From assembly GCF_002250115.1 (NCBI RefSeq), contig NZ_CP019985.1:2418001-2482000 (forward strand): a stretch of DNA of 64,000 nt, in the 5' to 3' direction. Both the position numbers and the translations under genes were made by a program. This DNA comes from Shouchella clausii. GTDB lineage: Bacteria; Bacillota; Bacilli; Bacillales; Bacillaceae_D. This document shows, in pieces, positions 16,153 through 62,686 of the stretch (positions within the stretch are counted from its first letter, which is position 1; each line of letters opens with the position of its first letter). The notes beneath the pieces are model-generated. The model did no database searches and was not told the DNA's origin. It saw only the letters and a program-made list of their open reading frames with translations.

Positions 16153-17480
16153 GCCAAGTGGAAATGACGGCACGGGAGCAGGCGATTCAAGCTGATTTTG
16201 CAAAACGGATGGACGAAACGGAGCTCCTTAACTGCATGCAATGCGGGTTTTGTTTGCCACACTGCCCAACTTATTTGGAGACAGGTTATCAAGAAGCACA
16301 TTCGCCTCGGGGCCGCATTGCCCTGATGAAAGCGGTCCATGACGGTTTGATCGCCCCAGATGAGGAAGTCAAACGCTCCTTAGACTTATGCCTGGGCTGT
16401 CGCGCTTGCGAACCTGTTTGTCCTGCAGGCGTAAACTATGGCCATATGCTTGAAGAAGCCCGTGACATTTTTGAAGACCATTCGATTCACTCTGCTGGTG
16501 TCAAAACGGTGCGCAAAACTGTGTTTGAAGGGTTGTTTCCCCACCAAAACCGAATGGAAAAAGCGATGAGCCTTGTTGGCTTTTACCAGCGTAGCGGACT
16601 GCAACACATTACCCGGAAAATAGGGTTTATGAAGTTGTTTCCAGAGAGCATGCAGGCAATGGAAAGGGCGATGCCAAACGTCCTTCCTCAAAAAGAGCGG
16701 AAGGCACACAAACGTGTATATGAAGCAGAGCAAGCGCCTGTTGCTACAGTTGCTTTTTTCAAAGGCTGTTTAATGGATACGATGTTTTATGAAACCAACA
16801 AAAACACGATTATGTTATTGCAAAAGGCTGGTTGCCGTATTGTCGTCCCAGATAGCCAAGGATGCTGCGGCGCCCTCCATGGCCATAGCGGCGAGAAGGC
16901 AAAGGCGCAAGAAATGGCGCGCAAAAACATTGATGCCTTTGAGGATAGCGGCGCCGATTTCATTATTTCAAATGCCGGCGGTTGTGGCGCTTTTCTCCAA
17001 GACTATAGTCATTTGCTTAGCAAAGACCGTGATTATGCTGAGCGTGCCGCTGATTTTACAGCCAAGATGAAAGACATCTCGCAAATTTTAGTAGAAGTCG
17101 GCTTTCATGAGCGCGTGCCGCTGAAATTGGCCTCCCAGCGGATCACTTACCAAGACTCGTGCCATTTACGCAATGTCATGAAAACAGCCTCTGCTCCCCG
17201 GCAGTTGCTCCAGGCAATTGAAGGGGTCGAATTGATCGAAATGGAAAAAGCCGATAGTTGTTGCGGGTCAGCAGGTATTTACAACATCATTGAGTCGGAA
17301 ATGTCGATGCAAATTCTTGACCGGAAAATGGAACATACAAAAGCGACGGAAGCAACGACAGTTGTCACAGCGAACCCTGGCTGCCTTTTGCAAATGAAGC
17401 TTGGCATTGAACGCGAAGGCTTACAACAAAAAATGGAGGCTGTCCATATCGTCGATTTACTTGCAGAAGCGGTTCAATAA
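16149..17480 (+). CDS. glcF: Glycolate oxidase iron-sulfur subunit GlcF
   Basis: 443 residues. Two 4Fe-4S motifs appear: CMQCGFCLPHCP near residue 26 and CLGCRACEPVCP near residue 81. They are followed by two cysteine-rich CCG domains (DSQGCCGALHGH near 236 and KADSCCGSAGIYN near 370). It conveys electrons from GlcD towards the quinone pool at the membrane. A separate GlcE subunit is absent, as in other Bacilli. The start overlaps glcD, giving translational coupling. The transcript ends in a repeat element followed by a strong hairpin. Confidence 0.93.
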   Translation: MSQVEMTAREQAIQADFAKRMDETELLNCMQCGFCLPHCPTYLETGYQEAHSPRGRIALMKAVHDGLIAPDEEVKRSLDLCLGCRACEPVCPAGVNYGHMLEEARDIFEDHSIHSAGVKTVRKTVFEGLFPHQNRMEKAMSLVGFYQRSGLQHITRKIGFMKLFPESMQAMERAMPNVLPQKERKAHKRVYEAEQAPVATVAFFKGCLMDTMFYETNKNTIMLLQKAGCRIVVPDSQGCCGALHGHSGEKAKAQEMARKNIDAFEDSGADFIISNAGGCGAFLQDYSHLLSKDRDYAERAADFTAKMKDISQILVEVGFHERVPLKLASQRITYQDSCHLRNVMKTASAPRQLLQAIEGVELIEMEKADSCCGSAGIYNIIESEMSMQILDRKMEHTKATEATTVVTANPGCLLQMKLGIEREGLQQKMEAVHIVDLLAEAVQ

Positions 17481-17486
17481 CCTCGC

Positions 17487-17611
17487 TCAGACTGATAGAA
17501 AACGCTTGTCAGACGAGGAGTGAAGGCGAGGGAAGATGCGAATAGAACGGGGGTTCATGAGCATATGACCGAGACAAACGACGAAGTATGCGAGCGTTTG
17601 TCTACAGTCTG
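17487..17611. mobile_element. Repeat element copy 1 (MITE core) behind glcF
   Basis: The 126 bases 17487-17612 match 60750-60875 with only six differences. The core starts TCAGACTGATAGAAAACGCT and ends AGCGTTTGTCTACAGTCTGA, an imperfect terminal inverted repeat of about 19 bp (one bulge on each arm). It begins seven bases after the glcF stop and runs directly into a terminator hairpin. The outer left end present in copy 2 is missing here, so this copy may be truncated. It encodes no transposase and was probably moved in trans. Confidence 0.8.
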
Positions 17612-17645
17612 AAGCCTTGCTAGGATGTCCTAGCAAGGCTTGTTT
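17612..17645 (+). terminator. Terminator hairpin after glcF and repeat copy 1
   Basis: A perfect 14-bp stem, AAGCCTTGCTAGGA with its complement and a 2-base loop, then TGTTT. It touches the right end of the repeat element. Confidence 0.85.
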
Positions 17646-45977: not shown

Positions 45978-46005
45978 AACACATGGCGGCAATCGCCATG
46001 TGTTT
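45978..46005. repeat. Left copy of the duplicated terminator hairpin (IS target site)
   Basis: A 28-base sequence, AACACATGGCG + GCAAT + CGCCATGTGTTT, identical to 47542-47569. It is an 11-bp palindromic stem. The right copy continues into TTTTTT, so the ancestral sequence was the terminator between the methyltransferase and galT. Confidence 0.9.
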
Positions 46006-47541
46006 CAGCCTGTCGACAAAGTCTCGGTTTTACCGAGACAGTCGACAGGCTTTTTTGTACAATAAAAGAAAGAAAAAAGGGTACAGGGTGAGGAAAAATG
46101 TTGTCCAAACAATTGGAAGATAAGCGGATGCAGATGGAGATGGTCTGGATTGAAAAGCTGGTGCCAGAGGATCATCTCGTTCGGAAGCTCGATGCAGTGA
46201 TTAATTTTGATTTCATTTATGACCTTGTCGAAGATCTTTACTCAAAAGACAAGGGTCGTCCGAGTGTGGATCCCGTGGTGTTGGTCAAAATGGTGTTCAT
46301 TCAATACATCTTTGGCATTCGTTCGATGCGTCAAACGATCAAAGAAATCGAAACCAACGTGGCCTACCGTTGGTTTTTAGGATTTGGCTTTGAGGACAAG
46401 ATCCCCCACTTTTCTACGTTTGGGAAGAACTACGTTCGTCGTTTCCGGGACAGTGACGTGTTTGAACAAATTTTTTATCGCATTCTGAAACAAGCAATGG
46501 ATAAAGGGTTTGTGAATCCAGACGTAGCTTTTATCGACTCGACCCCGATTAAAGCGAACGCCAATAAACGAAAGCATCGGAAAAAGGTCGTCCGTGCTGA
46601 GACGCGGGCCTATCAAGCCCAGTTGGAGGAGGAAATCAATGGGGAACGGGTGAAAAATGGAAAAAAGCCCTTACCTCCCTCGAAAAAAGATCCTGCGAGG
46701 GAGGTCAAGGAGAGTACCACGGATCCTGAGAGCGGCTACTATGCCAAAAGCGAGCGGGAAAAGATGTTTGCCTACAGTTTCCATACCGCTTGTGATGCCA
46801 ATGGATTTGTTCTGGGAACCATGGTGAAACCGGCGAATGTCCACGACAGCCAAGTATTCTACGAACTGTTTGACCAATTGAAAGACAAGGTGTGCCGACC
46901 AAAGGTTGTCGCTGTGGATGCGGGCTATAAAACGCCTGCCATTGCCAAAAAACTTCAAGAAGAAGGCGTTCATCCTGTTATGCCTTATAAACGCCCGATG
47001 ACCCCTAAAGGCTATATCCGAAAAAACGAGTTTGTCTATGATGAATACTACGATTGTTTTCTTTGCCCACAAAACCAGGTGCTTTCTTACCGAACGACGA
47101 ATCGAGAGGGGTACCGGGAATATGTCTCCGACCCTCGGATTTGTGAGACGTGCCCGCTGCTCGCTCAATGTACAAAGAGCCAAAACCACCAAAAGCTCGT
47201 TCTTCGCCATATTTGGCAAGATGCCCTGGATGAGGCAGAACATCTGAGGCATACGGCAAAGAACCGAGACATCTACGCCAAGCGCAAAGAAACGATTGAG
47301 CGTGTCTTTGCCGATCTGAAACAGAAGCATGGTCTGCGTTGGACCAACCTGAAAGGGTTGGAAAAAAATGCAATGCAGGCGATGCTTGTTTTTGCTGCGA
47401 TGAACTTGAAAAAATTAGCCACCTGGAGTTGGAGGAGGAACACCCCTCCAACTTCAAAGTCTCCAAAGTCCACCCACCTTTTTATCATCAACAAAACGCC
47501 TTTGAGAATCATTTTCTCAAAGGCGTTTTGTCTACGCTCTG
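46006..47541 (+). mobile_element. IS1182-family insertion sequence, 1536 bp
   Basis: Bounded by the two 28-base direct repeats. The left end reads CAGCCTGTCGACAAAGTC and the right end, read inward, CAGAGCGTAGACAAAACGCC, giving an imperfect inverted repeat (CAG...GT.GACAAA). One transposase gene fills the element. A strong hairpin with six Ts lies inside the left end (46008-46056) and would block outside transcription from reaching the transposase. Another hairpin (47491-47531) lies inside the right end. The element looks recent, because the target duplication is exact. Confidence 0.88.
46008..46056 (+). terminator. Shielding terminator inside the IS left end
   Basis: GCCTGTCGAC and GTCTCGG pair with CCGAGAC and GTCGACAGGC around TTTTA, followed by TTTTTT. 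The left terminal repeat is one arm of the stem. Confidence 0.85.
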
Positions 47542-47585
47542 AACACATGGCGGCAATCGCCATGTGTTTTTTATATCAAATCTGA
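46098..47585 (+). CDS. IS1182-family transposase (DDE)
   Basis: 495 residues. The N-terminal DUF772-type domain (EDHLVRKLDAVINFDFIYDL, GRPSVDPVVLVKMVFIQY) is followed by the DDE core: FIDSTPIKANANKRKHRK near residue 150, VVAVDAGYKTPAIAKKL near 270 and the final ERVFADLKQKHGLRW near 395. A CPLLAQCTKS cysteine cluster precedes the end. The frame does not stop inside the element. It runs through the right end and the duplicated hairpin and stops at 47585 in host DNA, so the last 15 or so residues are encoded by the insertion site. Confidence 0.93.
   Translation: MLSKQLEDKRMQMEMVWIEKLVPEDHLVRKLDAVINFDFIYDLVEDLYSKDKGRPSVDPVVLVKMVFIQYIFGIRSMRQTIKEIETNVAYRWFLGFGFEDKIPHFSTFGKNYVRRFRDSDVFEQIFYRILKQAMDKGFVNPDVAFIDSTPIKANANKRKHRKKVVRAETRAYQAQLEEEINGERVKNGKKPLPPSKKDPAREVKESTTDPESGYYAKSEREKMFAYSFHTACDANGFVLGTMVKPANVHDSQVFYELFDQLKDKVCRPKVVAVDAGYKTPAIAKKLQEEGVHPVMPYKRPMTPKGYIRKNEFVYDEYYDCFLCPQNQVLSYRTTNREGYREYVSDPRICETCPLLAQCTKSQNHQKLVLRHIWQDALDEAEHLRHTAKNRDIYAKRKETIERVFADLKQKHGLRWTNLKGLEKNAMQAMLVFAAMNLKKLATWSWRRNTPPTSKSPKSTHLFIINKTPLRIIFSKAFCLRSEHMAAIAMCFLYQI
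47542..47577. terminator. Right copy of the duplicated hairpin; terminator for galT side
   Basis: The same 28 bases as 45978-46005, here followed by TTTATAT. The galT stop codon (47571-47573, minus strand) lies in the T-rich flank. Confidence 0.85.
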
Positions 47586-59078: not shown

Positions 59079-60701
59079 ATGAAAAGAGTGACTCAAAAAA
59101 GGGCAATTCAGTCGGTTATCATTTTTGCTAGTTTTACAATAGGCATTCCGGCATTGGCAGAAAGCATAAGCGATCCTCCACCTGTATTGGAACCAAGTGA
59201 CCCGAATGGAAAACGCGTATTGTTTGATAACAGCCATGGGCAAACAGCCGGGCAATCCGATTGGGTCATAGACGGAGCTTTTTCGGACTTTGCCGATGCG
59301 CTAGTGGAAAACGGGTACTATGTCAAGGAACACCGTAGTGCAGAACCGCTAACTAGCGCCGATTTAGACGGGTACGATGTGTTTATTATTCCTGAAGCGC
59401 AAATTCCATTTAAGGCGATTGAGCAAGAGGCGATTGCCTCGTTTGCAGAAGAAGGGGGCGGCGTGTTTTTTATTGCTGACCATTACAATGCCGACCGCAA
59501 TTTTAACCGGCTTGATTCAAATGAAATTATGAACGGGTGGCGCCGAGGGGCTTATGATGACATAACAAAAGGGATGAGCAATGAAGAAAAAGAAGCACTC
59601 GAAGGTGTTGTAAGTTCAGATTGGCTTGCTGAAGAATTTGGCGTTCGTTTCCGTTACAATGCCATTGACCATACAGTAGCAGATACGATTGTCAGCCCTG
59701 AAGAGGCGTTCGGGATTACAGAAAACATTAGCGCTCTCTCCATTCATGCTGGATCAACGCTTGCAATTATTGACCCAAACGTCGCTAAAGGCGTTGCTTA
59801 CTTGCCTGATGGCCTGACGCCGGAAGCGAATAAATGGAACAACGCAGTTGACCAAGGTGTTTATCATGGCGGCGGAATGGAGGAAGGGCCTTATGCGGCT
59901 ATCGGAAAAAAGGGATTAGGCAAAGCAGCCTTTATTGGTGATTCATCTCCGGTCGAGGATGCGACCCCAAAATACCGCAACGAAGAACATGGCGGGACGA
60001 AGCGGACGTATGATGGATTTATCGATCAAGACAATGGTGTTTTCCTCGTGCAGGTAGTCGACTGGCTTGCTGAACAAGAATCCTATACCAACTTTGCTGA
60101 AGCAGGAATTCCTTTAGACGAACCGTCCCCACTTTTGGAAATGGAACTGCCTGAAAAGACAACAGAACCACAGGCTGAGCCATGGCGACAACCGCAAGGG
60201 GATTATCGGTGGTATGACCGTTCTACTTTTGCGGCCGGATCGTTTGGCAGTGGACAGGAGGCACCGCTAGAAGTGGAATATGATTTGGAAACGCCAGAGG
60301 CGCTCCCACTAGGAGGGCAGACGTTTTCTGTGACCGTGGAGCTCCGTCATTTGGAGCCGAACCAAACGGTCAACAGCCTTGACATGCAAGTATACTTACC
60401 AGGAGGACGTTCGATCTCGCAAATTCAAGGGGAGGATGGAAGTTGGCCTAGCTCTTACGGCTACCACCAAATCGGCACGTTGACCGCTGATGCTACAGGG
60501 ACAGCAACGAAAACGGTCACGATGCGTTTGAACCCGTCGGTGGAGGCCGATTCGGCAATGATTCGCTTGCGCAATGACCGCCAAAATGTCGTGACGCAAA
60601 CAGTTGCTCTTACTGCCGCCAGCGAAAAGGTGACGAAACACCCGACGATTCAAAAGAGCTTAAAACGAAAAAGTGTACCAGTGGCAATAGCAGGAAGCTA
60701 G
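59079..60701 (+). CDS. Large secreted protein with GATase-like N-terminal domain
   Basis: 540 residues. A signal peptide ends at PALAES near residue 28. Residues about 45-310 resemble the class-I glutamine-amidotransferase-like (DUF4350/GldG-type) fold: KRVLFDNSHGQTAGQSDWVI, YDVFIIPEAQIPF, EGGGVFFIADHYNADRNFNR and AAFIGDSSPVEDAT. The second half is a beta-sandwich-like domain (about 400-515) ending in a basic tail. Similar modules occur beside secreted nucleases and phosphodiesterases in Bacillus. The catalytic cysteine of true amidotransferases is absent. Probably a binding or structural exoprotein; no function assigned. Confidence 0.6.
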   Translation: MKRVTQKRAIQSVIIFASFTIGIPALAESISDPPPVLEPSDPNGKRVLFDNSHGQTAGQSDWVIDGAFSDFADALVENGYYVKEHRSAEPLTSADLDGYDVFIIPEAQIPFKAIEQEAIASFAEEGGGVFFIADHYNADRNFNRLDSNEIMNGWRRGAYDDITKGMSNEEKEALEGVVSSDWLAEEFGVRFRYNAIDHTVADTIVSPEEAFGITENISALSIHAGSTLAIIDPNVAKGVAYLPDGLTPEANKWNNAVDQGVYHGGGMEEGPYAAIGKKGLGKAAFIGDSSPVEDATPKYRNEEHGGTKRTYDGFIDQDNGVFLVQVVDWLAEQESYTNFAEAGIPLDEPSPLLEMELPEKTTEPQAEPWRQPQGDYRWYDRSTFAAGSFGSGQEAPLEVEYDLETPEALPLGGQTFSVTVELRHLEPNQTVNSLDMQVYLPGGRSISQIQGEDGSWPSSYGYHQIGTLTADATGTATKTVTMRLNPSVEADSAMIRLRNDRQNVVTQTVALTAASEKVTKHPTIQKSLKRKSVPVAIAGS

Positions 60702-60720
60702 GGGGTTTTTCCCCTAGCTT
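60695..60720. terminator. Terminator hairpin, left copy flanking the MITE
   Basis: AAGCTAGGGG, a 6-base GTTTTT loop and CCCCTAGCTT. It overlaps the stop codon of the secreted protein gene. A near-identical copy lies at 60875-60899. Confidence 0.85.
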
Positions 60721-60874
60721 GAGGTTGTCGACAAAGTCGATAACCGCACTCAGACTGATAGAAAACGCTTGTCAGACGAGGAGTGTAGCCGAGGGAAGAT
60801 GCGAATAGAACGTGGGTTCATGAGCATATGAGTGAGGCAAACGACGAAGTATGCGAGCGTTTGTCTACAGTCTG
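60721..60874. mobile_element. 154-bp MITE, IS1182-related ends (repeat element copy 2)
   Basis: Bounded by near-identical 26/25-base hairpin copies. The left end GAGGTTGTCGACAAAGTC resembles the IS left end (CAGCCTGTCGACAAAGTC, 14 of 18). The right end read inward, CAGACTGTAGACAAACG, resembles the IS right end (CAGAGCGTAGACAAAACG). It has no coding capacity for a transposase. Bases 60750-60874 are shared with copy 1 behind glcF. Best explained as a miniature element mobilised in trans by an IS1182-family transposase. Confidence 0.8.
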
Positions 60875-60902
60875 AAGCTAGGGGATTTTCCCCTAGCTTT
60901 CC
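60875..60902 (-). terminator. Terminator hairpin, right copy flanking the MITE
   Basis: AAGCTAGGGG, ATTTT, CCCCTAGCTT. It contains the adenine deaminase stop codon and serves as that gene's terminator. Confidence 0.85.
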
Positions 60903-62614
60903 TCGTTTACAAACAATGGAACGACTTTGCCGTTATTAACATCAATTAACCCGAAATCAGTAATTTTCAGGGCAGGGCTAACTGGCAAAGATAACGTCGA
61001 CAGTGACATAATCGGATTGTAATGCTTATAACCTAATGCCGTTAGCGCTTTAACGAACGATTCGACCTTTGGCGCAAGCTCGGTTAGGGGCGCTTCAGAA
61101 AGAATACCGCCAACTGGCAGTTCAAGCATCGCTTTCACTTCCCCGTTCTCTACTGCCGCACAGCCTCCTTGTGCTTGGATGACTGCGTTTGCTGCACAAA
61201 CCATGTCTCTGACGTTTGCGCCGATAACGAGCAAGTTATGGTTGTCGTGAGAATACGTTGTGGCCACTGCTCCACGCTGTATAATGTCTCCGGCGATCAG
61301 GCCGTGGGCACGCCCGCCCGTTTTACCGTAGCGTTCAAATGTGGCAATAAGACGAAAGTCGCTGTCTTGCCATTGAAGGAGGCCGTTTGCAACAGGCACC
61401 CTTTCCTGAGTTTCCTTTGTAAAGGTTGAGCCATCTGCGACATTCATCACCCGGCAAACATGGATGCCGTCTTGGCGGTCGGCAACCACGTGAAAATCCT
61501 CATCCTGTAGAGGAGCAAGCTTGACGCTTTCGTAAAAATGGGGTGGAAACTGCCTTGGCTTTGGCGTTTGTTTGTACGGGCTTGCTGCATCAAAGGCGAG
61601 CATTCCATCTTTATAAACAGCGGAAAAAACAAATTGGCCGTCTTCTGCAAGAAGACTGAAGTCAGCGATTTTTCCAGGAGCAATCGCGCCCCGGTCATCA
61701 AGTTTCATCCGCTTGGCAGGTGCCATTGTACAAGCATAAATGACGTCCTCAAACTTCATTCCTGCTGCGAGCGCTTTGTTTGCAAGAACATTTAAGTGGC
61801 CACGTTTATAAAGAGAATCAGCCATGACATCATCAGTAACAAAGCAAAAATGTTCTCGGACGTCGTTTTCAATCAAATAGGAAAGCACGTCGTCGGTCAT
61901 CGATTTTTCTTGGATTTCTAAAAACATGCCAGCTTTAATGCGTGCTTCCATTCCTTCTCTCGTTTGGTGTGTATGGTCAGACCCAATTCCGGCAGCAACA
62001 ATTTGATGAAGGTCGAGCCCTGTCAGCTTAGGCACATGCCCTTCGATAGGAAGAGCAGGATAGGAACGCCGGAAATGCTTGAGGATTTGGTTTGTTTTTG
62101 ACTCAGGCTTTGAAATGACATCGACATAGTTCATGATTTCTCCTAAGCATTGGATGTCCTCTGTGTCCATTAATTCAACCATTTCTGCGATTCCGATGGC
62201 GCCGCCAGTCGTTTCCAAGCTAGTAGCGGGAACAGAACTAGGGATCGCATATTTCATATCAACCGTACAGGCTGCGCTTGCCTCAATCATGGCTTTAATG
62301 CCTTCGATTCCAAACACATTGGCCATTTCATGAGGCTCTGCAACGATCGTTGTCACGCCATTTCGTAATAGTGCCCACGAAAAAGTTTCTGGTGTGACCA
62401 TCGAGCTCTCGATATGCAAATGGATATCGATTAAGCCAGGAATCATTTGCCGGCCTTGGCCATCAATAGTTGCCTTGGCTTGAATCGATTCAAGTTCGTC
62501 GCTGTGACCGATTGCCACAAATCGGCCTTCGTTAATCGCGACGTCACTGGCGATAAATTGCTGTATATAGGCGTTATAGACGCGTACGTTTTTCACTAAA
62601 GTATTTACATGCAT
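60893..62614 (-). CDS. adeC: Adenine deaminase
   Basis: 573 residues from ATG 62614 (GGAGGA seven bases upstream). Amidohydrolase features are MIPGLIDIHLHIESSMVTPE near residue 53, TIVAEPHEMANVFG near 88, the later DHTHQTREGMEARIKAG and FVTDDVMADSLYKRGH near 270. It converts adenine to hypoxanthine in purine salvage and nitrogen use. It lies 72 bases behind an ABC ATPase gene on the same strand, which suggests co-transcription with that transporter. Its 3' end falls in a duplicated terminator hairpin. Confidence 0.95.
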   Translation of the reverse strand: MHVNTLVKNVRVYNAYIQQFIASDVAINEGRFVAIGHSDELESIQAKATIDGQGRQMIPGLIDIHLHIESSMVTPETFSWALLRNGVTTIVAEPHEMANVFGIEGIKAMIEASAACTVDMKYAIPSSVPATSLETTGGAIGIAEMVELMDTEDIQCLGEIMNYVDVISKPESKTNQILKHFRRSYPALPIEGHVPKLTGLDLHQIVAAGIGSDHTHQTREGMEARIKAGMFLEIQEKSMTDDVLSYLIENDVREHFCFVTDDVMADSLYKRGHLNVLANKALAAGMKFEDVIYACTMAPAKRMKLDDRGAIAPGKIADFSLLAEDGQFVFSAVYKDGMLAFDAASPYKQTPKPRQFPPHFYESVKLAPLQDEDFHVVADRQDGIHVCRVMNVADGSTFTKETQERVPVANGLLQWQDSDFRLIATFERYGKTGGRAHGLIAGDIIQRGAVATTYSHDNHNLLVIGANVRDMVCAANAVIQAQGGCAAVENGEVKAMLELPVGGILSEAPLTELAPKVESFVKALTALGYKHYNPIMSLSTLSLPVSPALKITDFGLIDVNNGKVVPLFVNEES

Positions 62615-62686
62615 AATAAGTCCTCCAACTTCCGCAATGGACAATGGTTGTATTTCACTTTCGTATAGGGCCTAACGCAGGAAGCA

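What the first reader, a model, noticed from the sequence alone, without database searches (positions are those of the whole stretch)
60695..60899. A 154-bp non-coding MITE with IS1182-like ends, flanked by duplicated terminator hairpins
The element's left end shares GTCGACAAAGTC with the IS left end, and its right end shares GTAGACAAA (read inward) with the IS right end. Both elements end in CTG next to a hairpin that begins AA and ends TT, and both are bracketed by hairpin copies (25/26 bp here). This links a small repeat to an autonomous transposase in the same window and implies a terminator-seeking MITE family that appears not to be described.
Basis: partly seen in the sequence, partly recalled or inferred. 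Interest (0 to 1): 0.75.

Follow-up and report, generated by a model that had tools for sequence, protein, structure and literature searches.

The report
Mobile element that duplicates terminator hairpins
A 154-base non-coding mobile element, present in at least 40 places in this Bacillus-type genome, inserts at hairpins that mostly look like the ends of genes and duplicates the whole hairpin, in the same way as an IS1182-type insertion sequence in the same window, so it can probably spread with little harm to the genes beside it.

Summary
Confirmed and extended. Window 60721-60874 is a 154-bp MITE with at least 40 loci in this genome (capped). Full-length copies lie between two copies of a hairpin that differs at each locus: left and right flanks match at 28 of 29 copies, against 0 of 812 cross-locus pairs. 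Three related species keep an empty site with one hairpin, for this MITE, a second copy and the window's IS1182 element. So the hairpin is a target duplication. IS and MITE share both ends (15/18 and 13/15); IS1182 elements in five other species make the same duplication.

The family is wide: 52 of 299 sampled genomes of the order, including Gottfriedia, Peribacillus, Litchfieldia and Domibacillus. Its ~125-nt core is a covarying fold-back without an Rfam match.

One prediction fails: 17 of 52 carrier genomes show no IS1182 transposase. Precedents limit novelty: IS1272 (IS1182 family) targets terminator hairpins but deletes them; IS1630 (IS30-type) is titled as duplicating inverted repeats. 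In the papers searched I found no description of this MITE family, nor a case of whole-hairpin duplication by an IS1182 element; ISfinder was not available.

The parts
60695..60720 (.). left copy of the duplicated target hairpin (26 bp, 10-bp stem); the stop codon of the + strand ORF 59079-60701 lies inside it
60721..60874 (+). 154-bp MITE, one of at least 40 loci in this genome
   Evidence: alignments
60721..60745 (+). left end; predicted to fold as a small hairpin (10-bp stem, 3-nt loop, at 60723-60745)
60751..60874 (+). conserved ~124-nt fold-back core, outer stem CAGACTG...CAGTCTG, conserved in structure across genera
60875..60899 (.). right copy of the duplicated target hairpin (25 bp, 11-bp stem); the - strand ORF 60893-62644 ends inside it
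45978..46005 (.). left 28-bp hairpin duplicate of the IS
   Evidence: single copy in three relatives
46006..47541 (+). IS1182-type insertion sequence (1536 bp), ends CAGCCTGTCGACAAAGTC and CAGAGCGTAGACAAA
46098..47585 (+). ORF of the IS1182 transposase (495 aa); the frame runs past the IS right end to a stop beyond the right hairpin
47542..47569 (.). right 28-bp hairpin duplicate of the IS
17474..17611 (+). second MITE copy in the window, left end lost (matches element positions 17-154)
17612..17641 (.). 30-bp hairpin directly after the right end of the truncated copy

Best explanation
It is a non-autonomous transposable element moved in trans by IS1182-type DDE transposases. The transposase recognises ends resembling CAG..TGT.GACAAA (the left end of the G000 element begins GAG) and uses a DNA hairpin, usually an intrinsic terminator, as target by its shape. 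It joins the element's 3' ends to the 5' feet of the hairpin on the two strands, so the stagger equals the hairpin; gap repair then duplicates the whole hairpin. Each neighbouring gene keeps a hairpin, so insertions are nearly neutral and accumulate. Shown: hairpin-sized, locus-specific duplications; single-hairpin empty sites; the same behaviour and similar ends in the IS. Inferred: transposase in trans, chemistry of joining, recognition by shape, neutrality.
For: At least 40 loci in G000; hairpins at 36/40 right and 26/29 left edges against 8/800 controls; flank match 28/29 against 0/812 cross-locus; 29 different hairpins at 29 loci, exact repeats of 20-26 bp at 16 of 29. Empty sites in G004, G009 and G011 at all three loci examined: the overlap of the two flanks is the single hairpin itself, 25-26 bp for this MITE, 25 bp for a second MITE copy, 25-28 bp for the IS (first seen). 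IS1182 elements: exact hairpin repeats in 13 of 20 fetched loci plus the window copy. End match. Terminator signs: T-rich edge at 23 of 36 right hairpins in G000 against 60 of 1000 controls; outside Shouchella 26 of 49 assessed loci lie between convergent ORFs and 0 between divergent ORFs.
Against: No transposition was observed. 17 of 52 carrier genomes have no detected IS1182 transposase, and carriage is not significantly tied to it (p = 0.17). In five such carriers an exact scan for the left-end motif gave 26 hits (none in one of the five), and by reading the flanks I saw none at the edge of a transposase-sized element. Several genomes are drafts in which repeated IS copies can be lost. Seven of the 20 IS1182 loci fetched show no hairpin repeat. 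The published IS1182 case, IS1272, deletes its hairpin. Not all sites look like terminators: 13 of 36 right hairpins in G000 lack the T-rich edge, and 5 of 40 G000 loci lie between divergent ORFs by a mechanical ORF call. Full-length copies in G000 are biased in orientation (12 to 2 among co-directional neighbours), loci of other genera are not (13 to 10); unexplained.
Confidence: 0.82

Rival explanations
1. The same kind of element, but moved by another transposase (for example an IS30-type enzyme like IS1630), with the IS1182 likeness due to convergent or shared ends.
For: Carriers without a detected IS1182 transposase: 17 of 52; Litchfieldia salsa (G053) has eight further copies 90-99% like its reference copy (nine examined) but no hit with NF033551, PF13751 or the window protein. 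IS1630 (IS30-type) is titled as targeting and duplicating inverted repeats.
Against: Both ends match the resident IS1182 element above the rest of the window, and IS1182 elements in six species, this one included, make the same duplication. No IS30 search was made.
Confidence: 0.12
2. The hairpins belong to the element and travel with it (a longer repeat unit of about 205 bp).
For: Hairpins abut most copies.
Against: 29 of 29 hairpins differ between loci; left matches right within a locus but in 0 of 812 cross-locus pairs; relatives without the element keep one hairpin of the same or nearly the same sequence at the three loci examined.
Confidence: 0.01
3. A structured non-coding RNA gene in 3' untranslated regions, duplicated by recombination rather than transposition.
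For: Covarying fold-back core and G.U pairs favouring the + strand.
Against: Precise insertions with a target duplication, at unrelated loci, present or absent between close species.
Confidence: 0.04

Closest known systems
IS1272 and TnSha1 (IS1182 family, Staphylococcus); PMC5678879 (abstract and passages) and PMC4923244 (passages, parts of the abstract among them)
   Same: IS1182 family; target chosen as an inverted repeat or terminator hairpin without a sequence consensus
   Different: There the hairpin is deleted or replaced and no target duplication is made; here the whole hairpin is duplicated, which PMC5678879 drew as hypothetical pathway b. Those are transposase-bearing elements, this is a 154-bp non-coding one.
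IS1630 of Mycoplasma fermentans (IS30-type; Calcutt 1999, title seen in the reference list of PMC3317919, paper itself not read)
   Same: [quoted passage not shown] PMC3317919 (passages read) reports 16-, 23-, 25- and 26-bp duplications at four of seven complete copies
   Different: IS30-type transposase and a complete IS; no MITE mentioned in the passages read
Class C group II introns at terminators (recalled, no call)
   Same: Insert at intrinsic terminators (recalled)
   Different: Retroelements with ribozyme and reverse transcriptase and no target duplication (recalled); this element is too short for either and has no Rfam match
Bacterial MITEs in general (review PMC10969869, seen in search listings only)
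   Same: Short, non-coding, ends shared with an IS, target duplication, many copies
   Different: Target is a hairpin duplicated whole; fold-back core conserved by compensatory change across genera

Membership tests
MITE | Short, multicopy, without a transposase gene | tested here: met
   154 bp, room for at most 51 codons; at least 40 loci in G000
MITE | Ends shared with an autonomous IS | tested here: met
   15/18 left and 13/15 right against the window IS
MITE | Target site duplication, empty site in relatives | tested here: met
MITE of the IS1182 group | Present only with an IS1182 transposase | tested here: not met
   17 of 52 carriers without a match at E <= 1e-10; 35/52 against 139/247, p = 0.17; draft assemblies and past loss not excluded
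MITE of the IS1182 group | Moved in trans by an IS1182 transposase | not testable with these tools
   Needs a transposition assay; end match and shared duplication are indirect
IS1182 family (the window IS) | IS1182 transposase | tested here: met
   NF033551, 484 bits, cut-off 270
IS1272-type stem-loop replacement | Hairpin lost on insertion, no target duplication | tested here: not met
   Hairpin duplicated in MITE and window IS
IS30/IS1630 | IS30-type transposase | not tested
   The MITE encodes none; no IS30 search was made
REP/RAYT or IS200/IS605 element | No target duplication (recalled) | tested here: not met
   Hairpin-sized duplication
Known Rfam RNA family | Covariance-model match | tested here: not met
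   No match at E <= 1 overlapping the element in the window or in six loci (its three weak hits, E 0.11-0.2, lie outside the element)

The most novel reading that the evidence does not exclude
The conserved ~125-nt core is a functional folded strand, RNA read from the upstream gene or single-stranded DNA, that takes part in its own movement or acts on its hosts' 3' ends. The family would then be a mobile structured RNA that uses terminators as landing sites, spread through much of the order and able to persist or expand where no IS1182 transposase is resident.
Probability: 0.25. Interest if true: 0.85.

Novelty: new variant of a known kind. Interest (0 to 1): 0.62.

Why it matters
It supplies natural cases of the hairpin-duplicating outcome that the IS1272 authors drew as a possibility, so one transposase family appears able either to delete or to duplicate its hairpin target. 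It shows how a mobile element can fill a genome with probably little harm by landing on terminators. It also gives a widespread, structurally conserved repeat that I found under no name, which annotation could mark and bench work can test directly.

Tried and rejected
Rejected: hairpins as part of the element (empty sites); 5' truncation as in target-primed retroelements. The 11 copies in G000 that lack the left end show no left hairpin where the match begins (read by eye; L027 has a weak inverted repeat there), and one (L022) has an orthologous-looking complete copy in G011 (L060), so they look like later deletions. The idea that the ~125-nt forms are a separate short element was dropped when copies in G053 and G056 proved to have their own left end and left hairpin. 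An alignment with wrongly oriented copies (A1) was discarded. A one-orientation rule was dropped: the bias is seen in G000 (12 to 2 full-length, p = 0.013; 16 to 3 with truncated copies, p = 0.004) and G011 (8 to 1), not in loci of other genera (13 to 10, p = 0.68). Left-end motif scan in five carriers without IS1182: 26 exact hits, judged by reading the printed flanks, at most 1.5 kb on each side; none looked like a transposase-sized element with this end. The ORFs there were not annotated. Paper searches that gave nothing used here; two searches gave only the review named under Closest known systems and PMC4923244 (in the list).

Limits: one search scored 40 of 161 first-look candidates and one search scored 40 per genome, so copy numbers are lower bounds. 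Of the copies matched I read with flanks 40 in G000, 34 in G011, 26 in G009, 10 in G004, 9 in G006, 9 in G053, 7 in G056 and 1 in G010. Control positions mix coding and non-coding DNA. Six G045 IS copies were fetched of the ten full-length ones listed, and one to two in each other genome. One search scored 9 candidates a genome. The carrier table was tallied by hand, assuming the same 299 genomes in both. ORF directions are mechanical calls and no genome-wide baseline was computed.

Full report
What was checked. The genome in which the window lies (G000, unnamed) gave 42 matches, which I treat as 40 loci because one locus has three pieces; the search scored only 40 of 161 candidates, so this is a lower bound. 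I read all 40 with flanks. Twenty-nine keep the left end; 11 have lost it.

Hairpins and duplication. In G000 a stem scoring at least 6 within 3 nt of the element is found at 36 of 40 right edges and 26 of 29 left edges, against 8 of 800 control positions in the same loci. Left and right flanks match in at least 15 of 18 bases at 28 of 29 loci and in 0 of 812 cross-locus pairs. Among the copies read in other genomes the counts are 12/14 in G009 (cross-locus 0/182), 22/26 in G011 (0/650), 10/10 in G004 (0/90), 7/9 in G006 (0/72), 9/9 in G053 (0/72) and 7/7 in G056 (0/42). All 29 right hairpins in G000 differ from each other, and 16 of 29 loci have exact repeats of 20-26 bp. The hairpin belongs to the locus, not to the element.

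Empty sites. At three loci (this MITE, a second MITE copy L004, and the window's IS) G009, G011 and G004 match both flanks with an overlap on the target. Read out, the overlap is the single hairpin: 25-26 bp for the window MITE, 25 bp for L004, 25-28 bp for the IS.

The IS. The window IS has an IS1182 transposase and an exact 28-bp hairpin repeat. Of 20 IS1182 loci fetched, 13 have exact hairpin repeats: 3 of 4 further copies of this IS in G000, 5 of 6 in G045, 2 of 2 in G029, and one each in G043, G056 and G022. Seven do not: one G000 copy of this IS, one truncated G045 copy, four G000 loci of other IS1182 relatives (two of them identical copies) and one at a contig end. IS and MITE ends agree at 15 of 18 and 13 of 15 bases, above the rest of the window (13 and 12).

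Terminators. Right hairpins have a T-rich edge at 23 of 36 copies in G000 against 60 of 1000 controls, and similarly in G009, G006, G053 and G056; 13 of 36 do not. At the window locus itself the tail is weak and a consensus scan does not call it; relatives keep a T-rich stretch at the empty site. At 49 assessed matches outside Shouchella and Bacillus sp. JCM 19041, among the 80 loci listed, 26 lie between convergent ORFs, 23 between co-directional ORFs and none between divergent ORFs; in G000 5 of 40 are called divergent. The 49 were not screened for chance hits such as the planctomycete one named below.

Spread. A pattern scan of named genomes stopped at 120 stretches; the 80 listed are in Shouchella, Bacillus, Gottfriedia, Peribacillus, Cytobacillus, Litchfieldia, Domibacillus, Sporosarcina and others; one hit in a planctomycete looks like chance. 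A covariance model built from 32 elements finds the family in 52 of 299 genomes of the order, 28 of 116 genera.

Structure. The core folds into one long irregular fold-back in most of the 32 elements. On these, 92.2% of cells pair against 84.9% after shuffling, 77 cells change on both sides against 25.7 +- 3.8, and the covariation score is 0.234 against 0.124; no shuffle of 500 reaches any of the three. The number of pairs with a double change is less striking (13 against 9.9; 13 of 500 shuffles reach it), and further pair types are not raised (220 of 500). The structure was derived from the same alignment, and the sequences are related. G.U cells on the + strand number 102 against 24 A.C cells; without two near-constant G.U columns and one A.C column that I judge misaligned in Shouchella this is 49 against 15 (subtracted by hand). 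This leans to a folded + strand, RNA or single-stranded DNA.

Link to the transposase. 35 of 52 carriers and 139 of 247 non-carriers have an IS1182-profile match at E <= 1e-10, fragments included, Fisher p = 0.17. G010 and G053 show none, and G004 and G011 only short fragments.

Reading. Joining the element's 3' ends to the 5' feet of a hairpin duplicates it whole. This is pathway b of the model in PMC5678879 (passages read), drawn there as a possibility beside the replacement that IS1272 shows. PMC4923244 (passages read) reports terminator hairpins as targets of IS1272 and TnSha1, with deletion and no duplication. Both papers cite Siguier and colleagues that some IS1182 members target palindromes; I did not read that review (the 2014 review I asked for was not held, and may not be the one cited). 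That I found no name for the family rests on the searches and on Rfam; ISfinder was not available.

Noticed in passing
window 17474-17641: Second copy of the MITE, left end lost, with a 30-bp hairpin directly after its right end.
   Followed up: yes
window 46006-46070 and 47480-47541: Both ends of the IS contain an inverted repeat; the left one is followed by a T-run, so the IS may carry its own terminator against read-through (read by eye).
   Followed up: no
L105, L106 (G000:C1:1920600-1923600 and 4243800-4246800): Two identical copies (1841 bp) of another IS1182-type element for which no exact flanking repeat was found; the left flank of L106 looks like a remnant of the MITE core, as if the fold-back itself had been a target.
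   Followed up: no
L171 (G011:C28:46681-48048) and L032 (G000:C1:1194341-1197586): Tandem partial copies of the MITE core.
   Followed up: no
L029 (G000) and L177 (G011): 191-bp versions of the MITE, 37 bases longer than the window copy.
   Followed up: no
L213, L248, L278, L295, L298, L323 (genome contigs): Longer versions (197-259 bp) whose left end is a near-palindrome, for example CAGAGTGTAGACAAAGTC...GACTTTGTCTACA.
   Followed up: no
G000 loci: Full-length copies lie with the left end towards the upstream gene in 12 of 14 co-directional cases, a bias not seen in loci of other genera (13 of 23).
   Followed up: partly
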